DNA of 64,000 nt from Hephaestia sp. MAHUQ-44 (lineage in GTDB: Bacteria > Pseudomonadota > Alphaproteobacteria > Sphingomonadales > Sphingomonadaceae). Where the stretch lies: NCBI RefSeq assembly GCF_023806085.1, contig NZ_JAMSLX010000005.1, positions 218,595-282,594 of the forward strand, in the 5' to 3' direction. Each line of letters begins with the position of its first letter. The stretch's first letter is position 1. The notes under the pieces were generated by a model that had not been told where the DNA came from, did not search any database, and saw only the letters and a list, made by a program, of their open reading frames with translations. Both the position numbers and the translations under genes were made by a program. This document shows positions 27,977 through 35,699 of the stretch, piece by piece.

Positions 27977-28564
27977 CTACAGCCCCAATTCGCGCAGTGC
28001 CGCGCGGACACTCGGCAGCAAATCAGCCTCGAACCACGGGTGCTTGGCGAACCACGGCTGGTTGCGCGGCGACGGATGCGGCAGCGGCAGATAGCCCAGT
28101 GGCAGATACTCGCGCCACGCGGCCACCGTGGCGGTCAGCGTCGGCTTGCGGCGCGCGCGCAGATAATAGGCTTGCGCATAGCTTCCGACGAGCAGCGACA
28201 GCGCGATATCGGGCAGTTGGGCGAGCAGCTTGGCGTGCCACAGCGGCGCGCATTCGGGGCGCGGCGGATTGTCGCCCGAGGCCGCCTTGCCCGGATAGCA
28301 GAACCCCATCGGCACGATCGCGACCTTGGCGGGATCGTAGAATTGCGCCGGGCTCAGCCCCAGCCAGCCGCGCAGCCGATCGCCCGAGGGATCGTTCCAC
28401 GGCACTCCGGTGTCGTGCACCTTGCGCCCCGGCGCCTGGCTGATGATGCACAGCCGCGCGGTGCGCCCCGCCTGCACCACCGGCCGTGGGCCACATGGCA
28501 GATCGGCCGCGCACACGCGGCACGCGCGAATGTCGTCGAGCAATTGCGCCAGCGGATCGTGCAT
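27977..28564 (-). CDS. Uracil-DNA glycosylase family protein
   Basis: 195 aa, UDG superfamily fold. Motifs: CRVCAADLPCGPRP near the start, IISQAPGRKVHDTGVPWNDPSGDRLRGWLG (active-site loop), and LPHPSPRNQPWF (the HPSP/R motif). It belongs to the small group often annotated simply as uracil-DNA glycosylase family; activity on uracil is not certain from sequence. The gene ends nine bases after the HAD gene begins its own stop, with both on the minus strand and 9 bases apart, so they are probably co-transcribed. Confidence 0.85.
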   Translation of the reverse strand: MHDPLAQLLDDIRACRVCAADLPCGPRPVVQAGRTARLCIISQAPGRKVHDTGVPWNDPSGDRLRGWLGLSPAQFYDPAKVAIVPMGFCYPGKAASGDNPPRPECAPLWHAKLLAQLPDIALSLLVGSYAQAYYLRARRKPTLTATVAAWREYLPLGYLPLPHPSPRNQPWFAKHPWFEADLLPSVRAALRELGL

Positions 28565-28573
28565 GGTCCGCGC

Positions 28574-29275
28574 TTACGCTCCTCCCGCCGGATGGTCAGC
28601 CGCATAGGCACGCGACGACACCTCATCGAGATGGTGGAGCAGATCGGCCGGATCGTCATAGACGCGCAGCGCCCAGCTTCGTTCGAGTTCCTCGCGGCCA
28701 TAACCGCCCGAGAGCAATCCCACCCCGAGCGCGCGGCACCGCGCCGCCGCAAGCATATCCCACACGCTGTCGCCGACGACGATCGCATGATCAATCGGCA
28801 CCCCGAGCCGCCGCGCGGCCTCGACGAACAGGTCGGGGTCGGGCTTGGCGAAGCGCACCTGATCGCGCGTCACCACCACATTCTTGTCGGAATCGACCCC
28901 GAGCGCACGCAGATTGACGCTGGCGGTCTCGATCCGCCCGCTGGTCGCGATCGCCCAGGGCACACCCATGCCGGTCAGCGTGTCGAGCAATTCCTTGGCG
29001 CCCGGCAGCGGAACGACATCACCGGCGAGGCGATGATATGCCTCGGCATGACGCGCGCGCAGCCGCTGGATCATGGTCGCTTCGATCGGCCGGTCGATCT
29101 CGCGTAGCAATTGATCGGCGAACAGCCCGCCGCTCATCCCGATTTTGCGATGGATGCGCCAGACCGAGAGCGCGATGTCCTCCGACCGCAGCGCCTCGTG
29201 CCACGCCAGCACATGCTGATACACGCTGTCGACCAGCGTACCGTCGAGATCGAAGAGGAAGGAATTGCGCACCAT
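28574..29275 (-). CDS. HAD family hydrolase
   Basis: 233-aa haloacid-dehalogenase-fold phosphatase, subfamily IA. Motif I DLDGTLVDS (nucleophile Asp at residue 9), motif II ATSGR, motif III Lys in RFAKPDPDLF, and motif IV VVGDSVWDMLAA are all present, with a helical cap between motifs I and II. It resembles phosphoglycolate and sugar-phosphate phosphatases; the substrate cannot be read from sequence. It is transcribed away from the CRISPR locus. Confidence 0.9.
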   Translation of the reverse strand: MVRNSFLFDLDGTLVDSVYQHVLAWHEALRSEDIALSVWRIHRKIGMSGGLFADQLLREIDRPIEATMIQRLRARHAEAYHRLAGDVVPLPGAKELLDTLTGMGVPWAIATSGRIETASVNLRALGVDSDKNVVVTRDQVRFAKPDPDLFVEAARRLGVPIDHAIVVGDSVWDMLAAARCRALGVGLLSGGYGREELERSWALRVYDDPADLLHHLDEVSSRAYAADHPAGGA

Positions 29276-29387
29276 CGCAGGTCATCCGCCGCCATGACCT
29301 GCCAGCCAGGCCCATCGCGGCGTCTAGCAGATGCCCGACGCATTTCCCACCGGCGCGCCCCGCGCCGAAACGAACATGCCGGAAATG

Positions 29388-29533
29388 AAAAGGCGGGGCC
29401 GCAGCCCCGCCCTTATTTGGTGCAGTCAAGCTGCTTGTTAACAGCTGGCCCGCGATCTCTGAGATCAAACTCGTCTCACGCGAATGAAACGAAGTCAAGA
29501 GCCAGCCGCAACCAAGAGTCAATGGCAATCGCC
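29388..29533 (-). ncRNA. tracrRNA, with a long form that resembles a natural single-guide RNA
   Basis: On the minus strand, 29463-29437 is an anti-repeat. Against the array repeat it forms 11 uninterrupted base pairs (CTCAGAGATCG), one mismatch, then eight pairs including one GU, and a final AAC. It is followed by a nexus-like hairpin CAAGCAGCTTG (29437-29427) and a rho-independent terminator (GGCGGGGC/GCCCCGCC, 29411-29392, then TTTT). Upstream of the anti-repeat, 29512-29498 is a degenerate repeat in crRNA sense (GTTGCGGCTGGCTCT, 13 of 15 identical). Directly 5' of it, 29523-29513 matches the cas9 promoter. A short form could start near 29470 from a TTGACT (29498-29493). Promoters are uncertain. 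Confidence 0.85.
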
Positions 29534-29699
29534 GAAGCAGTTACGCATGCCCTTGAGCCGGATGCGGGGTTGGATTTTCCGCCTCCTGCACAATGATGAT
29601 TCATAGCTTTCCGGCTACTAGCGGCCTCATCCGCGGTATGGGCTCGCGGTCAGGCTACGCATCCTTGTGTTGCACCCCTTATCAACCGATATATGCCGA

Positions 29700-29728
29700 T
29701 TGTCAATCTCCAAGAGTCAATATTTTAT
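29700..29728 (+). promoter_or_regulatory. Predicted cas9 promoter containing an 11-nt tracrRNA-matched protospacer
   Basis: TTGTCA (29700-29705) and TTTTAT (29723-29728) are separated by 17 bases, a good sigma-70 promoter in this GC-rich setting. CAAGAGTCAAT at 29711-29721, entirely within the spacer, is identical to 29513-29523, the guide position of the long tracrRNA. On the guide-identical (minus) strand the protospacer is followed by GAGATTGACA, the place of the PAM. Transcription would begin near 29735, about 120 bases before the cas9 ATG. Confidence 0.65.
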
Positions 29729-29854
29729 GAGCCTCAACCACTACATGGTGATCAATCTGATGGGAAGCAGCGCATGGTGGTCAATCTGCTAGGGAGGGGC
29801 GAGAAGCTTGCGCAAATACGATTGAATAATAGTCTGTTCGCGGGGGAGAACAAT

Positions 29855-32800
29855 ATGCGGAGACTCGGACTCGACATCGGCACCAACAGCATCGGCTGGT
29901 GTCTCATCGAAGACGATGAGCGGATCATCGACATCGGCGTGCGCATCTTCAGCGATGGGCGCGATCCCAAATCGGGCGCCAGCCTTGCGGTCGATCGCCG
30001 CGAGGCGCGGGCGATGCGGCGGCGCCGCGATCGCTATATCGGGCGGCGCTCGGCGTTTCTCGACAGCCTTGTCGATTATGGGTTGATGCCCGCCGACAGC
30101 GACGAGGCCAAATTGGTCGCCGAGCGCGATCCCTATGCGATCCGCGCCCGCGCGCTGACCGAACGGCTGGAGCCGTATGAGATCGGCCGGGCGCTGTTCC
30201 ACCTCAACCAGCGGCGCGGGTTCAAATCGAACCGCAAGGCCGATCGGCGCGTCAAAGACAATGAGGACGGCAAGATCGCGAGCGGCGCCAAGGCGCTCGA
30301 TCAGGCGATGGCCGAGAGCGGCGCCGACACGCTCGGCCAGTTTCTGGCCGGCCGCGACCAGAAGCGCGTCCGGCTCGACAGCGACGCCCAAGGCTATGAT
30401 TTCTACCCGCAACGCCGCCATATCGACTATGAATTCGGCCGCATCTGGGAAGAGCAAGCGACGCACCATCCTGCCCTGCTGACCGACGAGGCGCGCGCCG
30501 CGCTGCACCGCATCCTGTTCTTCCAGCGCCCGCTCAAGGAAGCGGTGGTCGGCGTGTGCACCTTCGTCCAGACCGAACGCCGGCTGCCCAAGGCGCATCC
30601 GCTGTTCCAGCAACGGCGGCTCTATGAAGAGGTCAACCAGCTCGAGATCACCACACCGGGCGAGGCCCCGCGCAAGCTGACGCTCGACCAGCGCGATGCG
30701 TTGATCCTCGAACTACGCGGCAAGCGGAAGGTGGCGTTCTCCACGCTCGCACGCCGCCTCAAGCTCCAGCCGGGCGAGAGCTTCAACAAGGCGAGCGAGA
30801 CGCGCACCGATCTGGCGGGTGACGAGGTCCATGCCGTGCTTGCCGACAAGAAGCGCTTCGGCAAAGCCTGGGCGCATCTGCCCGCCGAGCGCCAATGGAC
30901 GATCATCGCGCGACTGATCGACGAGGAAGACCCCGACGCGCTCCATATGTTCCTGACCGAGGAATGCGGGCTGGACGACGAGGCCGCGCGCAACACCGCC
31001 AAGGCGCCGCTGCCCGAGGGCCATGGGCGGCTGGGCGAGACCGCGACGCGGCGCATCCTCGACGAATTGCGGCGTGAGGTCATCACCTATGACGAGGCGG
31101 TGCGGCGCGCCGGCTGGCATCATTCGGACGACCGCACCAGTAAGAGTCTGGACTGCCTGCCTTATTATGGCGAGTTGCTGGCGCGCGACATTCCGCCGGG
31201 CAGCCAACTCGCCACCGATCCGCCCGAGAAGCGGTTCGGCAAGATCACCAACCCCACGGTGCATATCGGGCTGCGGCAGCTCGAAAAACTGGTCAATGCG
31301 ATCATCGCCATCCACGGCAAACCCGACCAGATCGTTGTCGAACTCGCGCGCGAATTGAAGCTCAACGAGAAAGACCGCGCCGAGCACGATCGCCGCATCC
31401 ACCGCGATACCGTCGCCGCGATCGCGCGCGGCGAGTATCTCGAGCGCGAAGGGATCGCCAATACCGGCGCCAACCGGGCGCTGTTCAAACTGTGGGAGCA
31501 GCTCAACCCCGCCAACCCGCTCGATCGCCGCTGCCCGTATTGCGCCGAGCCGATCGGGATGCGCCAGCTCTTCTCGGGCGAGGCGGATGTCGATCACATC
31601 ATCCCTTATTCACGCTCGCTCGACGACAGCGCCTCGAACAAGGTCGTCGCGCATCGCCATTGCAACCGCAGCAAGGGCAACCGGACGCCCCATGAGCGCT
31701 GGGGGCATGACGCCGGAACCTGGGACAAGATCGCCGGGCAGGTGGCGCGGCTGCACCGGTCCAAGCAATGGCGCTTCGGCCCCGATGCTATGGAACGCGT
31801 CGCAAAGGATGGCGGCTTTCTCGCGCGCCAGCTTACCGACACGCAATATCTCTCGCGGCTCGCCGGCAAATATCTCCGCAGCCTCTATCCGACCAAGGAA
31901 GATGGCAGCGTCTATGTCATCCCCGGCCGGATGACCGCGATGCTCCGCCGCCTGTGGGGGCTCAACAGCCTGTTGAGCGATCACAATTACGTCGAGAACG
32001 CGCACAGCAGCGCGCCCAAGAACCGGCTCGATCACCGCCACCATGCGATCGATGCGGCGGTGACCGCGGTCACCACCCGCAGCCTACTCCAGCGGATCGC
32101 ACGCGTCGCCGGCCAGGCCGAGGACAAGGATCTCGACCGGCTGTTCGAGGGGCTCGATCAGCCGTGGGAGGGGTTTCGTGAACAGCTCGGCGCGGCGCTT
32201 GAGCGCGTGACGATCAGCCACAAACCCGATCACGGCCGCAAGGGCCGGCCGGCGCGCGATCGCGACGTCACCTCGGGGCAATTGCACAACGAGACCGCTT
32301 ATGGGCTGACCGGCGACGTCAACCGCAAGGGCGACAGCCTGGTCGTCTACCGGATCGCGCTGGCTAACCTCCAGCCCAAGGATCTGACCGATCCCGAGCG
32401 GATGACCGATCATGCGCTCCAGAATGCGCTGTATGCGGCGACGCGCGGGGCAACCGGCAGCGCGTTCCAGAAAGCGCTCGCCGATTTTTCCAAAGCGCCC
32501 GGCCCGTGGCAGGGCATCCGGCGGGTGCGCGTGCGCAAGCCGTTGCAGGTGATTCCGATCCGCGACGCCACGGGCCGCGCGTACAAGGGTTATCAGGGCG
32601 ATTCGAACGCGCTCTACACCGTGTGGCGCCTGCCCGACGGCAAATGGGTGACGCATTGGACCGACGCGGACGGGATCGCCCGATCGGGCATCGTCTCGAC
32701 CTTCGATTATCACCAGAAGGATTATGTCGAGCACCGCCCGCATCCGGCCGCGAAGAAGGTGCTGATGCTGCGCCAGAACGATCTGATCGCGATCGAACGC

Positions 32801-33022
32801 GACGGCGGCCCGCGCGAGATCATGCGCGTACAGAAATACGGCCAGAATGGACAAGTCTTCCTGATCGCCCACAACGAAGCCGGCAAGATGGCCGAACGCG
32901 ACAAGAACCCCGACGATCCGTTCAAATTCTACGGTCCGGGCGCCAGCGCGCTGCAAAAAATGAAAGCGCGGCAGGTGCGGATTGATCCATTGGGGAGGAT
33001 TTTCGACCCCGGCCCCCGATGA
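29855..33022 (+). CDS. cas9: CRISPR-associated endonuclease Cas9, type II-C
   Basis: 1055-aa compact Cas9 that cuts DNA under crRNA:tracrRNA guidance. RuvC-I LGLDIGTNSIGW (Asp7), arginine-rich bridge helix (about 49-72), RuvC-II IVVELARE (Glu496), HNH domain with CPYC (560-563) and VDHIIPYSRSLDDSASNKV (catalytic His581), RuvC-III HHAIDAA (His730, Asp733). All catalytic residues are intact, so it should be an active nuclease. The C-terminal 300 residues hold the wedge and PAM-interacting region. I chose ATG 29855, which has GGGGGAG six bases upstream; an open frame extends 54 codons further but through the promoter. It is followed by cas1 after 44 bases. Confidence 0.97.
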   Translation: MRRLGLDIGTNSIGWCLIEDDERIIDIGVRIFSDGRDPKSGASLAVDRREARAMRRRRDRYIGRRSAFLDSLVDYGLMPADSDEAKLVAERDPYAIRARALTERLEPYEIGRALFHLNQRRGFKSNRKADRRVKDNEDGKIASGAKALDQAMAESGADTLGQFLAGRDQKRVRLDSDAQGYDFYPQRRHIDYEFGRIWEEQATHHPALLTDEARAALHRILFFQRPLKEAVVGVCTFVQTERRLPKAHPLFQQRRLYEEVNQLEITTPGEAPRKLTLDQRDALILELRGKRKVAFSTLARRLKLQPGESFNKASETRTDLAGDEVHAVLADKKRFGKAWAHLPAERQWTIIARLIDEEDPDALHMFLTEECGLDDEAARNTAKAPLPEGHGRLGETATRRILDELRREVITYDEAVRRAGWHHSDDRTSKSLDCLPYYGELLARDIPPGSQLATDPPEKRFGKITNPTVHIGLRQLEKLVNAIIAIHGKPDQIVVELARELKLNEKDRAEHDRRIHRDTVAAIARGEYLEREGIANTGANRALFKLWEQLNPANPLDRRCPYCAEPIGMRQLFSGEADVDHIIPYSRSLDDSASNKVVAHRHCNRSKGNRTPHERWGHDAGTWDKIAGQVARLHRSKQWRFGPDAMERVAKDGGFLARQLTDTQYLSRLAGKYLRSLYPTKEDGSVYVIPGRMTAMLRRLWGLNSLLSDHNYVENAHSSAPKNRLDHRHHAIDAAVTAVTTRSLLQRIARVAGQAEDKDLDRLFEGLDQPWEGFREQLGAALERVTISHKPDHGRKGRPARDRDVTSGQLHNETAYGLTGDVNRKGDSLVVYRIALANLQPKDLTDPERMTDHALQNALYAATRGATGSAFQKALADFSKAPGPWQGIRRVRVRKPLQVIPIRDATGRAYKGYQGDSNALYTVWRLPDGKWVTHWTDADGIARSGIVSTFDYHQKDYVEHRPHPAAKKVLMLRQNDLIAIERDGGPREIMRVQKYGQNGQVFLIAHNEAGKMAERDKNPDDPFKFYGPGASALQKMKARQVRIDPLGRIFDPGPR

Positions 33023-33066
33023 TCGGCGTGCATGGGGGCCGATAGCGCTGTGCTGGGGGAGGCTTG

Positions 33067-34008
33067 ATGGACCGAATCGTCGATATCGCGACCGATGGGC
33101 GTCACCTGTCGCTCTACCGCGGTTTCCTGATCGTCGAAGAACAGCGCGAGGAAGTGGGACGCATCGCGCTCGACGATGTCCATGCGGTGATCGTCCACGC
33201 CTATGGCACGACCTGGAGTGCCAATCTGGTCGCCGCGCTGGCCGAACGGGGCGCGCCGCTGGTGTTTTGCGGCGCGAACCACGCCCCGATCGCGGTCACC
33301 TTGCCGGTCGCGGGCCACCACGCCCAGAATGCCCGCTTCCGCGCCCAATGGGAGGCATCCAAACCGCTGTGTAAACAGCTCTGGCGCCGGATTGTCGCGG
33401 CCAAGATCCTGATGCAGGGATCATTGTTGGCAGCACGCGCTGTCCCCGATGCGAGCGCCTTCGCGCTGATGGCGCGACGGGTGAAATCGGGCGATGCCGG
33501 GAACCTCGAAGCGCAGGCCGCGCGCCGTTACTGGCCGCTGCTGATGGGCCCCGCGTTCCGGCGCAGCCGCGACAGCCCTGGCGCCAACGCCCTGCTCAAT
33601 TATGGTTATGGCATCATGCGGGCCACCGTCGCCCGCGCCGTGGTCGCGGCCGGCCTGCACCCGACGATCGGCATCAACCACGCCAACCGCGGCAATGCGA
33701 TGGCGCTGGCCGACGACCTTATCGAGCCGTTCCGCCCGCTGGTCGACGCGCTCGTCGTCACGATGTCGACGCGAGGCATCGAAACGCTCGATCCCCCACT
33801 CAAGCGCCGTTTCGCGCGACTGATCGCGTTCGATCTGCGGGTCGGCGACGAGCTTTCCCCGGTATCGCTTGCCGCGGTGCAACTCGCCCAATCGCTGGCG
33901 CGATCGTTCGAGACCGGCCGGCCATCGCTGGCGCTGTTCGATCCGCCGACGCCGATCGAATGGTCGACGCTGACCCGGAAAGACGACAAGGATGCGCCGG
34001 CAGCGTGA
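33067..34008 (+). CDS. cas1: CRISPR-associated endonuclease Cas1
   Basis: 313-aa integrase that inserts new spacers together with Cas2. Metal-binding residues are placed at Glu148 (GNLEAQAARRYWP), His205 (GINHANRGN) and Glu220 (LADDLIEPFRP). The ATG at 33067 follows a strong GGGGGAGG; an adjacent TTG three bases earlier is less likely. It is typical of type II Cas1 in length and sequence and overlaps cas2 by GTGA. Confidence 0.96.
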   Translation: MDRIVDIATDGRHLSLYRGFLIVEEQREEVGRIALDDVHAVIVHAYGTTWSANLVAALAERGAPLVFCGANHAPIAVTLPVAGHHAQNARFRAQWEASKPLCKQLWRRIVAAKILMQGSLLAARAVPDASAFALMARRVKSGDAGNLEAQAARRYWPLLMGPAFRRSRDSPGANALLNYGYGIMRATVARAVVAAGLHPTIGINHANRGNAMALADDLIEPFRPLVDALVVTMSTRGIETLDPPLKRRFARLIAFDLRVGDELSPVSLAAVQLAQSLARSFETGRPSLALFDPPTPIEWSTLTRKDDKDAPAA

Positions 34009-34346
34009 GCGACACCTCCTATCTGAGCGGGTATCGTCTGATGTGGATTTTCGTCATGTTCGATCTGCCGGTTGGCACGAAGAAAGAAGCACGCGACGCC
34101 ACCAAATTCCGCGAGTTTCTGCTCGACGAAGGGTTCGAGATGAGCCAGTTTTCGGTCTATGCCCGCTTCTGCAACGGCAAGGACAGTTTCGAGTCGCATC
34201 TCGCCCGGATCGAGCGCAACCTGCCCGAGAAAGGCGATATTCACATCCTGACCTTCACGGACCGGCAATATGAAAATATCGTCAGATTTTCGAGCCAGCG
34301 CCGCCAGCGACCCCGACAGAATCCCGATCAACTGGCCATGTTCTGA
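34005..34346 (+). CDS. cas2: CRISPR-associated protein Cas2
   Basis: 113 aa from GTG 34005, which overlaps the cas1 stop. The ferredoxin-like fold begins YRLMWIFVMFDLPVGTKKEARDATKFREFLLDEGFEMSQFSVYARFC, with the conserved Asp in FDLP; the basic glutamine/arginine-rich tail ends NPDQLAMF. It forms the Cas1-Cas2 integration complex. An ATG at 34041 would delete the conserved SGYRL segment, so the GTG is preferred. No csn2 or cas4 follows, which fixes the subtype as II-C. Confidence 0.94.
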   Translation: MSDTSYLSGYRLMWIFVMFDLPVGTKKEARDATKFREFLLDEGFEMSQFSVYARFCNGKDSFESHLARIERNLPEKGDIHILTFTDRQYENIVRFSSQRRQRPRQNPDQLAMF

Positions 34347-34418
34347 TATCGAGCGACAGAATGCGCCACCCGAATGTGCCAGCTTCTCCTTGTTAATCAA
34401 GGCGTTGCCAGCACATCC
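34347..34418 (+). other. Gap between cas2 and the array; candidate leader
   Basis: 72 bases directly beside the first intact repeat. They contain a short inverted repeat CCTTG-TTAAT-CAAGG (34388-34402). Since the opposite array end has the degenerate repeat, this side is the likely spacer-acquisition end. No promoter is evident. Confidence 0.45.
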
Positions 34419-35045
34419 GGGTTAGCAGCTCAGAGATCGAGGGCCAACCGCAACCCATGCGAAGCCGGTGCGCGTCATGTAGAAGGGTTAGCAGCTCAGA
34501 GATCGAGGGCCAACCGCAACGAGAGGACTACCGCAAGCCGGTGAAAACAGGGTTAGCAGCTCAGAGATCGAGGGCCAACCGCAACTCCAGCGATCGCTGC
34601 CCGAGGCGCGGCTCGGGGTTAGCAGCTCAGAGATCGAGGGCCAACCGCAACCGTCCCGGCCCTCATCGCGTTTGTGGGACGGGGTTAGCAGCTCAGAGAT
34701 CGAGGGCCAACCGCAACCGAAGCACCGTCACCGTCGAAAGGCCGGTGGGGTTAGCAGCTCAGAGATCGAGGGCCAACCGCAACTCGCTGCGCAGCCGGCC
34801 GCGCTGGTCGATGGGGTTAGCAGCTCAGAGATCGAGGGCCAACCGCAACGGCCTTCGGCTTGCCGATGGCCGGAAGCGTGGGTTAGCAGCTCAGAGATCG
34901 AGGGCCAACCGCAACCGCACGGGCGAAACGCTCACGATCGCCGCGGGTTAGCAGCTCAGAGATCGAGGGCCAACCGCAACTCCGGTGCGCTCTGTGCGAT
35001 CAGAGAGCGGGGTTAGCAGCTCAACGAGCCAGAACCAGCGATAGC
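34419..35045 (-). CRISPR. CRISPR array: ten 36-bp repeats, nine 29-30-bp spacers
   Basis: Repeats start at 34419, 34485, 34550, 34616, 34682, 34748, 34814, 34880, 34945 and 35010. The first nine are identical; in crRNA sense they begin GTTGCGGTTGGCCCTCGATC and end GAGCTGCTAACCC. The tenth (35010-35045) keeps only the part GGGTTAGCAGCTCA and then diverges. Orientation is set by the tracrRNA anti-repeat: crRNAs are read from the minus strand, toward cas2. Each repeat holds TTGGCC and TAACCC 17 bases apart in crRNA sense, a weak match to an in-repeat promoter as known in Neisseria type II-C arrays. Spacer targets cannot be told from the window. Confidence 0.97.
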
Positions 35046-35072
35046 GCGCTGCCCCTGTAAAATCGCCTCTGC

Positions 35073-35699
35073 TCAGCCAAGACTGGCAACGAAATCCTTG
35101 GCCTGGCGGGCGACGGTGTCGGCATCGTCGCCCATGCGGTAAAGCGCCGAGCCGAGGCCGAAGCCGTTGGCGCCCGCCGCGCGCCACGGCTGCATCGTGG
35201 CGGGCGTGACGCCGCCGACCGCGAGCATCAATGCCTCCTTCGGCAACACCGCGCGGTGTGCCTTGAGCACGGCGGGCGACGCGCCCTCGGCGGGGAACAG
35301 CTTGAGCGCGGTGGCCCCCGCATCGAGCGCGGCGAAGGCTTCGCTGGGCGTGAAATAGCCCGGCAGCGACGCCATGTCGGCGGCCACCGTTGCACGGATC
35401 ACGTCCGGGTTGGTGTTGGGCGACACCACCATCCGCCCGCCGGCCGCCGCCACCCCGGCAACGGCATCGGTGGTCAGCACGGTGCCCGCGCCGATCATCG
35501 CGCGATCGCCGACCGTCTGCACCAGCCGCGCGATGCTCTCCAGCGGGTCGGGCGAGTTGAGCGGCACCTCGATCAGCGTGAAGCCGGCCTCGACCAGTGC
35601 CACGCCGATCGGCGCGACCTCGTCGGGCCGCACGCCACGCAGGATGGCGACCAGCGGGCAGCGCGCGAACGCGGCGGCGAAATCACGAACGGCGGTCAT
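35073..35699 (-). CDS. dgoA: 2-dehydro-3-deoxy-6-phosphogalactonate aldolase
   Basis: 208-aa class I aldolase of the KDPG/KDPGal family that cleaves 2-keto-3-deoxy-6-phosphogalactonate to pyruvate and glyceraldehyde 3-phosphate. Motifs: VAILRGVRPDEV, LIEVPLNSPDP (Glu), MIGAGTVLT, and the Schiff-base lysine in ATALKLFPAE. The GAGTV and N-S-P details favour the galactonate enzyme, as does the adjoining dgoK, whose stop overlaps this start. Confidence 0.9.
   Translation of the reverse strand: MTAVRDFAAAFARCPLVAILRGVRPDEVAPIGVALVEAGFTLIEVPLNSPDPLESIARLVQTVGDRAMIGAGTVLTTDAVAGVAAAGGRMVVSPNTNPDVIRATVAADMASLPGYFTPSEAFAALDAGATALKLFPAEGASPAVLKAHRAVLPKEALMLAVGGVTPATMQPWRAAGANGFGLGSALYRMGDDADTVARQAKDFVASLG

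What the first reader, a model, noticed from the sequence alone, without database searches (positions are those of the whole stretch)
29498..29728. Natural single-guide RNA predicted to repress cas9 in a type II-C locus
Seen: on the minus strand, an 11-nt sequence (29523-29513, ATTGACTCTTG) sits directly 5' of a degenerate crRNA-sense repeat (29512-29498), which precedes the tracrRNA anti-repeat, nexus and terminator in one possible transcript. The same 11 nt occur, in the same orientation, at 29721-29711, within the 17-bp gap of the predicted cas9 promoter (TTGTCA 29700, TTTTAT 29723), and are followed there by GAGATTGACA where a PAM would be. The match begins exactly at the repeat boundary. 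Known: in S. pyogenes (type II-A) a long tracrRNA with this layout and an 11-nt match lets Cas9 bind but not cut its own promoter. Inference: the same feedback exists here in a type II-C system. A chance 11-mer match at that exact boundary within a few hundred bases is of the order of 1 in 10,000.
Basis: partly seen in the sequence, partly recalled or inferred. Interest (0 to 1): 0.93.

Follow-up and report, generated by a model that had tools for sequence, protein, structure and literature searches.

The report
Natural single-guide RNA represses its Cas9
In this likely sphingomonad genome, the helper-RNA locus of a CRISPR-Cas9 immune system carries an 11-letter guide that matches the predicted on-switch of the system's own cas9 gene, and some relatives carry different guides that match the region before their own cas9, so the RNA is predicted to lead Cas9 back to turn its own gene down; in the paper passages we could read, this feedback is described only for another CRISPR subtype.

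Summary
On the minus strand, ATTGACTCTTG (29523-29513) abuts a degenerate crRNA-sense repeat that folds onto the tracrRNA anti-repeat. The same 11 nt lie in the -35/-10 gap of the predicted cas9 promoter and occur nowhere else in the 3.51-Mb genome. Of 98 cas9 loci (window, 57 from relatives, 40 from a class-wide sample), 24 showed the repeat/anti-repeat layout in a scan blind to the guide. In 13 of those 24 the guide matched its own cas9 upstream region better than all 97 foreign ones. Guides differ in sequence and in target strand. Four more loci match weakly and one was found by eye (0 of 97): 18 of 98. Target flanks share a PAM-like nRGnATTG. The window's flank (GAGATTGA) is one base short of it, so PAM use here is unproven. 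Transcription and repression are inferred. I found this layout reported only for type II-A; [quoted passage not shown] New variant of a known kind: type II-C, both target strands, and a long class with a hairpin leader.

The parts
29513..29523 (-). 11-nt natural guide ATTGACTCTTG at the 5' side of the degenerate repeat
   Evidence: only two copies in the genome
29495..29512 (-). degenerate crRNA-sense repeat GTTGCGGCTGGCTCTTGA (12 of first 14 nt match the array repeat)
   Evidence: pairs with the anti-repeat in the fold
29470..29498 (-). predicted internal promoter of the short tracrRNA: TTGACT-N17-GACGAG, -10 ending 6 nt before the anti-repeat match
   Evidence: simple scoring; spacing of 3-7 nt in 11 of the 17 loci scored there
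29437..29463 (-). tracrRNA anti-repeat CTCAGAGATCGCGGGCCAGCTGTTAAC
   Evidence: local alignment to the array repeat (core CTCAGAGATCGCGGGCCA); fold
29388..29434 (-). tracrRNA nexus-like hairpin GCAGCTTGACTGC and G+C-rich terminal hairpin followed by T run
   Evidence: fold; by eye similar core in the 12 relatives printed
29711..29721 (-). target: second copy of ATTGACTCTTG, inside the 17-bp gap of the predicted cas9 promoter
29701..29710 (-). PAM-side flank GAGATTGACA; contains TTGACA (29706-29701)
   Evidence: compared with 16 other flanks
29700..29728 (+). predicted cas9 promoter TTGTCA-N17-TTTTAT
   Evidence: best of the guide-to-cas9 region; not found by the strict scan
29678..29706 (-). 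predicted promoter of the long tracrRNA: TTGACA-N17-GATAAG, -10 ending 165 nt 5' of the repeat boundary; its -35 box overlaps the PAM side and the cas9 -35 box
   Evidence: best-scoring candidate between target and guide; not found by the strict scan
29560..29650 (-). weak version of a two-hairpin leader (about 29649-29631 and 29586-29560) seen more clearly in five relatives
   Evidence: the window itself did not pass the hairpin scan
29855..33022 (+). cas9, 1055 aa, with HNH and RuvC-III domains
33064..34008 (+). cas1, type II
33987..34346 (+). cas2
34418..35044 (-). CRISPR array (crRNA sense on the minus strand): 9 near-identical repeats plus one degenerate terminal repeat; 8 spacers read

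Best explanation
The tracrRNA locus of this type II-C system encodes a single-guide layout (11-nt guide, degenerate repeat, anti-repeat, nexus-like hairpin, terminal hairpin) whose guide matches the predicted cas9 promoter, so a long tracrRNA likely folds into a natural single guide that would direct Cas9 to bind, but not cut, that promoter and repress cas9. Shown: the layout, the unique 11-nt match, the computed fold, and guide-target matches kept in some relatives whose guides differ. Predicted: a long transcript from a promoter upstream of the guide, a short tracrRNA from the internal TTGACT promoter, and Cas9 binding over the -35/-10 gap. Inferred from S. pyogenes: an 11-nt match allows binding without cleavage. 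In the window the PAM side carries a TTGACA box on the tracr-L strand, so one bound Cas9 may shut both the cas9 promoter and the divergent long-tracrRNA promoter.
For: The 11-mer is unique to guide and target in the genome. A layout scan that ignored the guide gave 27 candidate rows (at most two per locus) in 24 of 98 loci; in 13 loci the guide matched its own cas9 upstream region better than all 97 foreign regions, where about 0.3 rows would be expected; L101, found by eye, does so too. Related guides in the window and L097 (ATTGACTCTTG, ATTGGCTCTTA) differ at two positions and both targets carry the same two changes. In 9 of the 13 loci the longest word shared with the cas9-proximal side ends 0 or +1 nt from the repeat boundary. 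The best promoter candidate anywhere between guide and cas9 overlaps the target in 9 of 17 loci, 3.9 expected from random placement; in the window it is the top candidate. Flanks of 17 targets share G2 (14), G3 (13), A5 (13), T6 (13) in both orientations. Fold z = -4.88.
Against: The window's own flank GAGATTGA has G3 and T6 but not G2 and A5; it looks one base short. No convincing protospacer was found for the window's spacers; the weak ones have mixed flanks. No promoter passes a strict scan, and within 85 nt of the window's guide 197 of 200 shuffles score as well as the best candidate. In 8 of 17 loci the best promoter candidate does not overlap the target. In 4 of the 13 clear loci (L100, L105, L204, L045) the longest shared word does not end at the boundary, because of mismatches or, in L045, an offset. 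A weak terminator-like hairpin lies between guide and anti-repeat (29493-29470). 80 of 98 loci show no such pair, including the close relative L094, so the feedback is dispensable. No transcript data.
Confidence: 0.77

Rival explanations
1. In the window the pair is a decaying relic: relatives repress cas9 this way, but here a one-base loss beside the target spoiled the PAM and the match merely persists.
For: The window's flank is N3-ATTGA where most relatives have N4-ATTG or similar; the trait is scattered on the Cas9 tree and needs at least 12 changes over 92 rows, so losses may be frequent; the hairpin leader is also weak in the window.
Against: The full 11-nt match and the repeat/anti-repeat pairing are intact, and the window's guide and target differ from those of L097 in the same two places. 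Flanks of other clear pairs also deviate (L001 AGCG, L043 GGAG, L055 GAAA).
Confidence: 0.15
2. The 11-bp word is a shared operator of a transcription factor that controls both the long-tracrRNA and the cas9 promoters; the position next to the repeat is incidental.
For: Promoter-proximal direct repeats do occur here: CATGGTGRTCAATCTG is present twice between promoter and cas9.
Against: The word differs from locus to locus while matching within each locus, is inverted in 13 of 18 pairs, and in 9 of 13 clear loci ends at the repeat boundary. A fixed factor's operator would keep its sequence.
Confidence: 0.03
3. The long RNA acts at the RNA level, pairing with the cas9 leader like an antisense RNA, as reported for the N. 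meningitidis scaRNA on efeO mRNA.
For: A type II-C scaRNA acts post-transcriptionally in N. meningitidis (PMC13431127, abstract and passages).
Against: In the window the target lies between the predicted -35 and -10, upstream of a transcript from that promoter. In the 13 inverted pairs the guide has the sense of the cas9 strand and cannot pair with cas9 mRNA.
Confidence: 0.03
4. Chance 11-mer match beside a degenerate repeat.
For: Single short matches do arise; 11 of the 24 layout loci do not reach the 0-of-97 level.
Against: Two genome-wide copies only, shuffles reach 9 at most for the window, 13 loci above all foreign controls.
Confidence: 0.02

Closest known systems
tracr-L natural single guide of S. 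pyogenes type II-A (Workman et al. 2021; paper not held, known here through passages of PMC8616872, PMC11417352, PMC8730458, PMC12216829)
   Same: Guide 5' of the tracrRNA on one long RNA; 11-nt match (9 bp in PMC8730458) in the cas promoter; short and long forms from two promoters.
   Different: Type II-C locus without csn2; target flank nRGnATTG-like rather than GGG; targets on either strand; a long class with a hairpin leader and divergent promoter candidates sharing the target site; no measurements.
scaRNA of Francisella novicida (type II-B, recalled; PMC8730458 passage)
   Same: Diverged repeat plus short complementarity makes Cas9 a repressor instead of a nuclease.
   Different: scaRNA is a separate RNA that pairs with tracrRNA and represses lipoprotein genes; here guide and tracrRNA are in cis and the target is upstream of cas9.
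scaRNA of Neisseria meningitidis, type II-C (PMC13431127 abstract and passages)
   Same: Small RNA beside a type II-C locus, bound by Cas9.
   Different: Acts on efeO mRNA and binds Cas9 in vitro independently of tracrRNA and PAM; the passages seen do not describe it as a cas9-promoter guide.

Membership tests
Type II-C CRISPR-Cas | cas9-cas1-cas2 with array and no csn2 or cas4 | tested here: met
   Cas9 (TIGR01865), type II Cas1 (TIGR03639), Cas2; the six neighbouring ORFs scanned are a HAD hydrolase, a molybdopterin oxidoreductase, a uracil-DNA glycosylase-like protein, an aldolase, a DGOK kinase and a sodium:solute symporter; no other long ORF between cas2 and the array but those inside the repeats. 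That lack of csn2/cas4 defines II-C is recalled.
Type II-C CRISPR-Cas | Cas9 falls in the II-C branch of a reference Cas9 tree | not tested
   The tree holds only relatives of this Cas9, no reference proteins of II-A or II-B.
tracr-L autoregulatory natural single guide | guide directly 5' of a degenerate crRNA-sense repeat, on the tracrRNA strand, upstream of the anti-repeat | tested here: met
   fold
tracr-L autoregulatory natural single guide | about 11-nt guide match in the cas promoter, ending at the guide/repeat boundary | tested here: met
   the promoter itself is predicted
tracr-L autoregulatory natural single guide | functional PAM beside the match | tested here: inconclusive
   Most relatives share nRGnATTG; the window's GAGATTGA is one base short; spacer hits too few and mixed
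tracr-L autoregulatory natural single guide | separate promoters for long and short tracrRNA | tested here: inconclusive
   Candidate boxes at recurring spacing; strict scan finds none in the window
tracr-L autoregulatory natural single guide | Cas9-dependent repression of cas genes measured | not testable with these tools
   needs bench work
tracr-L as described (type II-A) | type II-A locus with csn2 | tested here: not met
   no csn2 seen
scaRNA (F. novicida type) | separate RNA acting in trans with tracrRNA on non-cas genes | tested here: not met
   the guide is in cis with the tracrRNA and its only other genomic copy is upstream of cas9

The most novel reading that the evidence does not exclude
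Cas9 self-repression by natural single guides is an old and recurrent trait of alphaproteobacterial type II-C systems. Guide and promoter target co-evolve so freely that their sequence turns over completely and even flips strand. In a long-leader class the same bound Cas9 silences two divergent promoters, its own and that of the guide, and a conserved two-hairpin leader with TCCAAAC loops marks this class.
Probability: 0.45. Interest if true: 0.87.

Novelty: new variant of a known kind. Interest (0 to 1): 0.8.

Why it matters
How type II systems keep Cas9 low was answered in Streptococcus by tracr-L; whether II-C systems have such a brake was open in what I could read. This gives guide-promoter pairs from several lineages, 14 of them clear, with guides that differ in sequence and target strand, so the idea can be tested by swaps between loci. 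It also offers natural data on how short a guide may be for binding without cutting, hints at PAMs of uncharacterised Cas9s, and a caution for tool builders: native tracrRNA loci of such enzymes may carry a self-repressing guide.

Tried and rejected
PAM from spacers: the window's array against phages gave only distant hits (Sinorhizobium phage portal gene, 3 mismatches of 30, flank TCCACTGT; Microcystis phage, 5 mismatches, CCCACTGA). Three viral-contig scans with 19-nt ends of three of the eight spacers read gave 0, 1 and 0 contigs; the one contig does not match the whole spacer within 8 mismatches. L097's array gave no phage hit at E 1, L040's only weak plasmid hits (38 records, best E 0.3 among those listed). 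Array searches in genomes gave, besides other arrays and weak hits, L040 spacer 8 with GGGCAACT twice (2-3 mismatches) and TTACGTCA once (4), and L101 spacers with TGGCTTTG and CGGCATTC (5-6 mismatches); the window's own spacers gave 4-6-mismatch hits with mixed flanks (CACCGCGG, CCGGCTCG, AGGTGGGA, TGGCAGCG, TGTTCGGT) (the output was cut, repeats it filtered). Too few and too mixed to define a PAM.

Rfam gives nothing in 28500-35100 up to E 1. A loosened repeat search in the 81 loci without a pair gave no further convincing pair: at 0 of 97 L101 (its row is half of its own hairpin), L061 (inside a repeat) and L198 (7-of-12 repeat match 21 nt from the anti-repeat, not followed); at 1 of 97 L222 and L115, at 2 L220, not followed. 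L101's pair was then seen by eye in the sequence and tested after the fact. A covariance model of the hairpin leader was not built, because the alignment was poor. My first hairpin scan was faulty and found 1 of 98; the corrected one is. My first promoter-overlap count, 14 of 17, searched only around the target, so overlap was half built in; the unbiased count is 9 of 17. The genome-contig scan used one protein and found 3 loci.

L045's 18-nt match ends 2 nt short of the better repeat boundary (GTTGCAATCGGACC), so it is counted as irregular. The second L045 row (plus strand) at 0 of 97 is similarity between repeat copies and was left out of the 13.

Full report
What is there. On the minus strand the region reads, 5' to 3': ATTGACTCTTG (29523-29513), a degenerate crRNA-sense repeat GTTGCGGCTGGCTCTTGA (29512-29495), about 30 nt, the anti-repeat CTCAGAGATCGCGGGCCAGCTGTTAAC (29463-29437), a nexus-like hairpin and a G+C-rich terminal hairpin. 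Cas9 (29855-33022, 1055 aa), type II Cas1, Cas2 and an array with repeats at 34418-35044 lie on the other side. Six neighbouring ORFs scanned are no cas genes, so no csn2 or cas4 was seen, which fits type II-C. The organism is not given; named records with the closest Cas9 are Sphingobium sp. YR768, a Sphingomicrobium MAG and an Acetobacteraceae MAG.

The match. The 11 nt recur at 29721-29711 between TTGTCA (29700) and TTTTAT (29723). In the whole genome of 3,512,180 bases the 11-mer occurs twice, at these two places. The longest word shared between the guide/repeat segment and the cas9-proximal segment is 12 nt against at most 9 in 60 shuffles. The RNA 29523-29385 folds at -63.7 kcal/mol, z = -4.88, with the degenerate repeat paired to the anti-repeat: the shape of a single-guide RNA.

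Relatives. I searched 397 genomes of the family, 295 of the genus and 385 of the class with this Cas9; 37, 28 and 70 had a match, the own genome included each time. Flanks were fetched for most family and genus matches (weak or very short ones left out) and for 40 of the class matches; a 3.1-kb fragment (L015) was fetched but not used. With the three loci and the window this makes 98 cas9 loci, some of them partial. For each locus the array repeat was read, corrected or borrowed, the anti-repeat was found by local alignment, and a degenerate sense repeat (at least 10 of the first 14 nt) was sought up to 230 nt 5' of it. This step does not use the guide. It gave 27 rows (at most two a locus) in 24 loci. 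The 12 nt 5' of each repeat were then compared with the locus's own cas9 upstream region and with those of the other 97 loci. In 13 loci the own match beat all 97: the window, L093, L001, L036, L097, L040, L100, L043, L045, L105, L204, L228, L055. About 0.3 rows would be expected. Weaker: L003 (2 of 97 as good), L102 (4), L041 (7), L047 (9). Rows without support: L036 plus strand, L096, L049, L199, L053, L228 second row, L225, L226, L235; a second L045 row is repeat self-similarity. L101 was added by eye: guide AGTGACCTA, target AGTGACCTA followed by TGGGATAACA; put through the same comparison afterwards it stands at 0 of 97. In all 18 of 98 loci, 14 of them clear; L045's match is offset from the better repeat boundary by 2 nt. 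No two of these 18 share more than thirty 25-mers in their 300 nt upstream of cas9, so they are not copies of one locus.

Co-variation. Guides differ: AAGAGTGGTAG (L036), ATGCGCTAGGT (L001), AGCACTACGT (L040), AAATGGAGTAG (L043), CCTCCATTTTA (L055), each matching its own upstream region. The window and L097 have related guides that differ at two positions, and their targets carry the same two differences. In 5 of 18 pairs the target is on the tracr strand (window, L097, L100, L047, L101), in 13 on the other. A Cas9 tree of 92 rows scatters the trait, with at least 12 changes (FastTree, some long branches; L101 still counted there as lacking it). Among the 27 loci closest to the window (best tblastn segment above 1200 bits) 13 have a pair, counting the weak L003, L041, L102 and the irregular L045; of the 40 class-sample loci 2 do (L204, L228).

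Promoters. Searched without bias over the whole stretch between guide and cas9, the best simple-scoring promoter candidate overlaps the target in 9 of 17 loci, 3.9 expected from random placement; in the window it is the top candidate. In 6 of 13 opposite-strand loci the -35 box of the candidate near the target starts 16-17 nt from the start of the 11-nt target, just behind the first PAM positions. The internal short-tracrRNA candidate ends 3-7 nt before the anti-repeat match in 11 of 17 loci. In 6 of 10 loci with a short guide-to-target distance a candidate -10 box ends 26-29 nt before the repeat boundary, which would start the RNA with about 19-22 nt of guide; taken singly most of these are no better than shuffles (4, 43, 133, 74, 157 and 96 of 200). 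In the long class one of the three best candidates ends 158-182 nt upstream in 6 of 7 loci (window 165, its best; in L097 it is the third best, in L045 the second).

PAM. Flanks of 17 targets (L045 left out, L101 included) share G2 (14), G3 (13), A5 (13), T6 (13). Of these the window's GAGATTGA keeps G3 and T6; L097's GGGGATTGA suggests a lost base. Part of the shared ATTGA may be the -35 box itself rather than PAM. Read one base earlier, the window's flank would be GGAGATTG, which fits, but then the guide's last base would stand outside the hybrid. This stays unresolved, and spacer searches did not settle it (see Tried and rejected).

Hairpin leader. Between target and guide in the long class lie two hairpins, the first of 12-16 bp with a TCCAAAC-like loop. 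A motif-and-stem scan found such hairpins in 5 of 98 loci, all tracr-L loci (L097, L100, L101, L045, L047; a second one in four of them), against 0.2 loci expected from shuffles. The motif was chosen from these loci, so the number is not a test; the absence in the other 93 is informative. The window has only a weak version that did not pass.

Literature. 'tracr-L' occurs as a whole word in 3 papers of the library since 2021: PMC11417352 (12 of 26 passages), PMC8616872 (passages) and PMC12216829 (passages); in the passages seen it is a type II-A matter. [quoted passage not shown] PMC8730458 (passages) speaks of many Streptococcus species. Searches combining tracr-L, the founding title or tracrRNA terms with II-C or type II list 1, 3, 12 and 15 (of 27) papers; no listed title reports a II-C case, but I opened only some of them (PMC13187072 and PMC8224270, passages; PMC13431127). 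Broader searches and PMC10013973 (passages) added nothing. The founding paper, a 2023 survey of CRISPR-derived regulatory RNAs (recalled) and a 2024 follow-up were not held, so a II-C case in them is not excluded.

Mechanism. Most likely a long tracrRNA serves as natural single guide, Cas9 binds its own promoter through 10-12 bp and, as in S. pyogenes, does not cut. Shown are layout, match, computed fold and co-variation; transcript, PAM use, binding and repression are inferred. The RNA-level rival is disfavoured because in 13 of 18 pairs the guide has the same sense as cas9 mRNA and in the window the target lies upstream of the predicted transcript.

Noticed in passing
window 29649-29560 (weak); L097, L100, L101, L045, L047 upstream of cas9: A recurring two-hairpin element with TCCAAAC-like loops lies between the cas9-promoter target and the guide in the long class; stems differ in sequence but keep pairing; function unknown.
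   Followed up: partly
window 29744-29759 and 29773-29788: Direct repeat CATGGTGRTCAATCTG twice between the predicted promoter and cas9; TCAATCT also occurs at the PAM side of the target (29703-29709).
   Followed up: no
L095, L096, L098 upstream of cas9: In these three related loci the tracrRNA anti-repeat is on the opposite strand, pointing towards cas9, and no supported natural guide was found.
   Followed up: partly
L045 upstream of cas9: An 18-nt match between the tracr region and the cas9 upstream region ends 2 nt before the repeat boundary; its near relative L043 has a different guide with a regular 12-nt match.
   Followed up: partly
G418:C1:1298349-1298393 (L188): A solitary 45-nt stretch 91% like part of L097's array in a same-genus genome where no cas9 match was found.
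   Followed up: no
L132 and L136: L040 spacer 8 (2-3 mismatches) and L101 spacers 20/22 (5-6 mismatches) match the same stretch in two genomes, about 100 nt apart; the gene was not identified.
   Followed up: no
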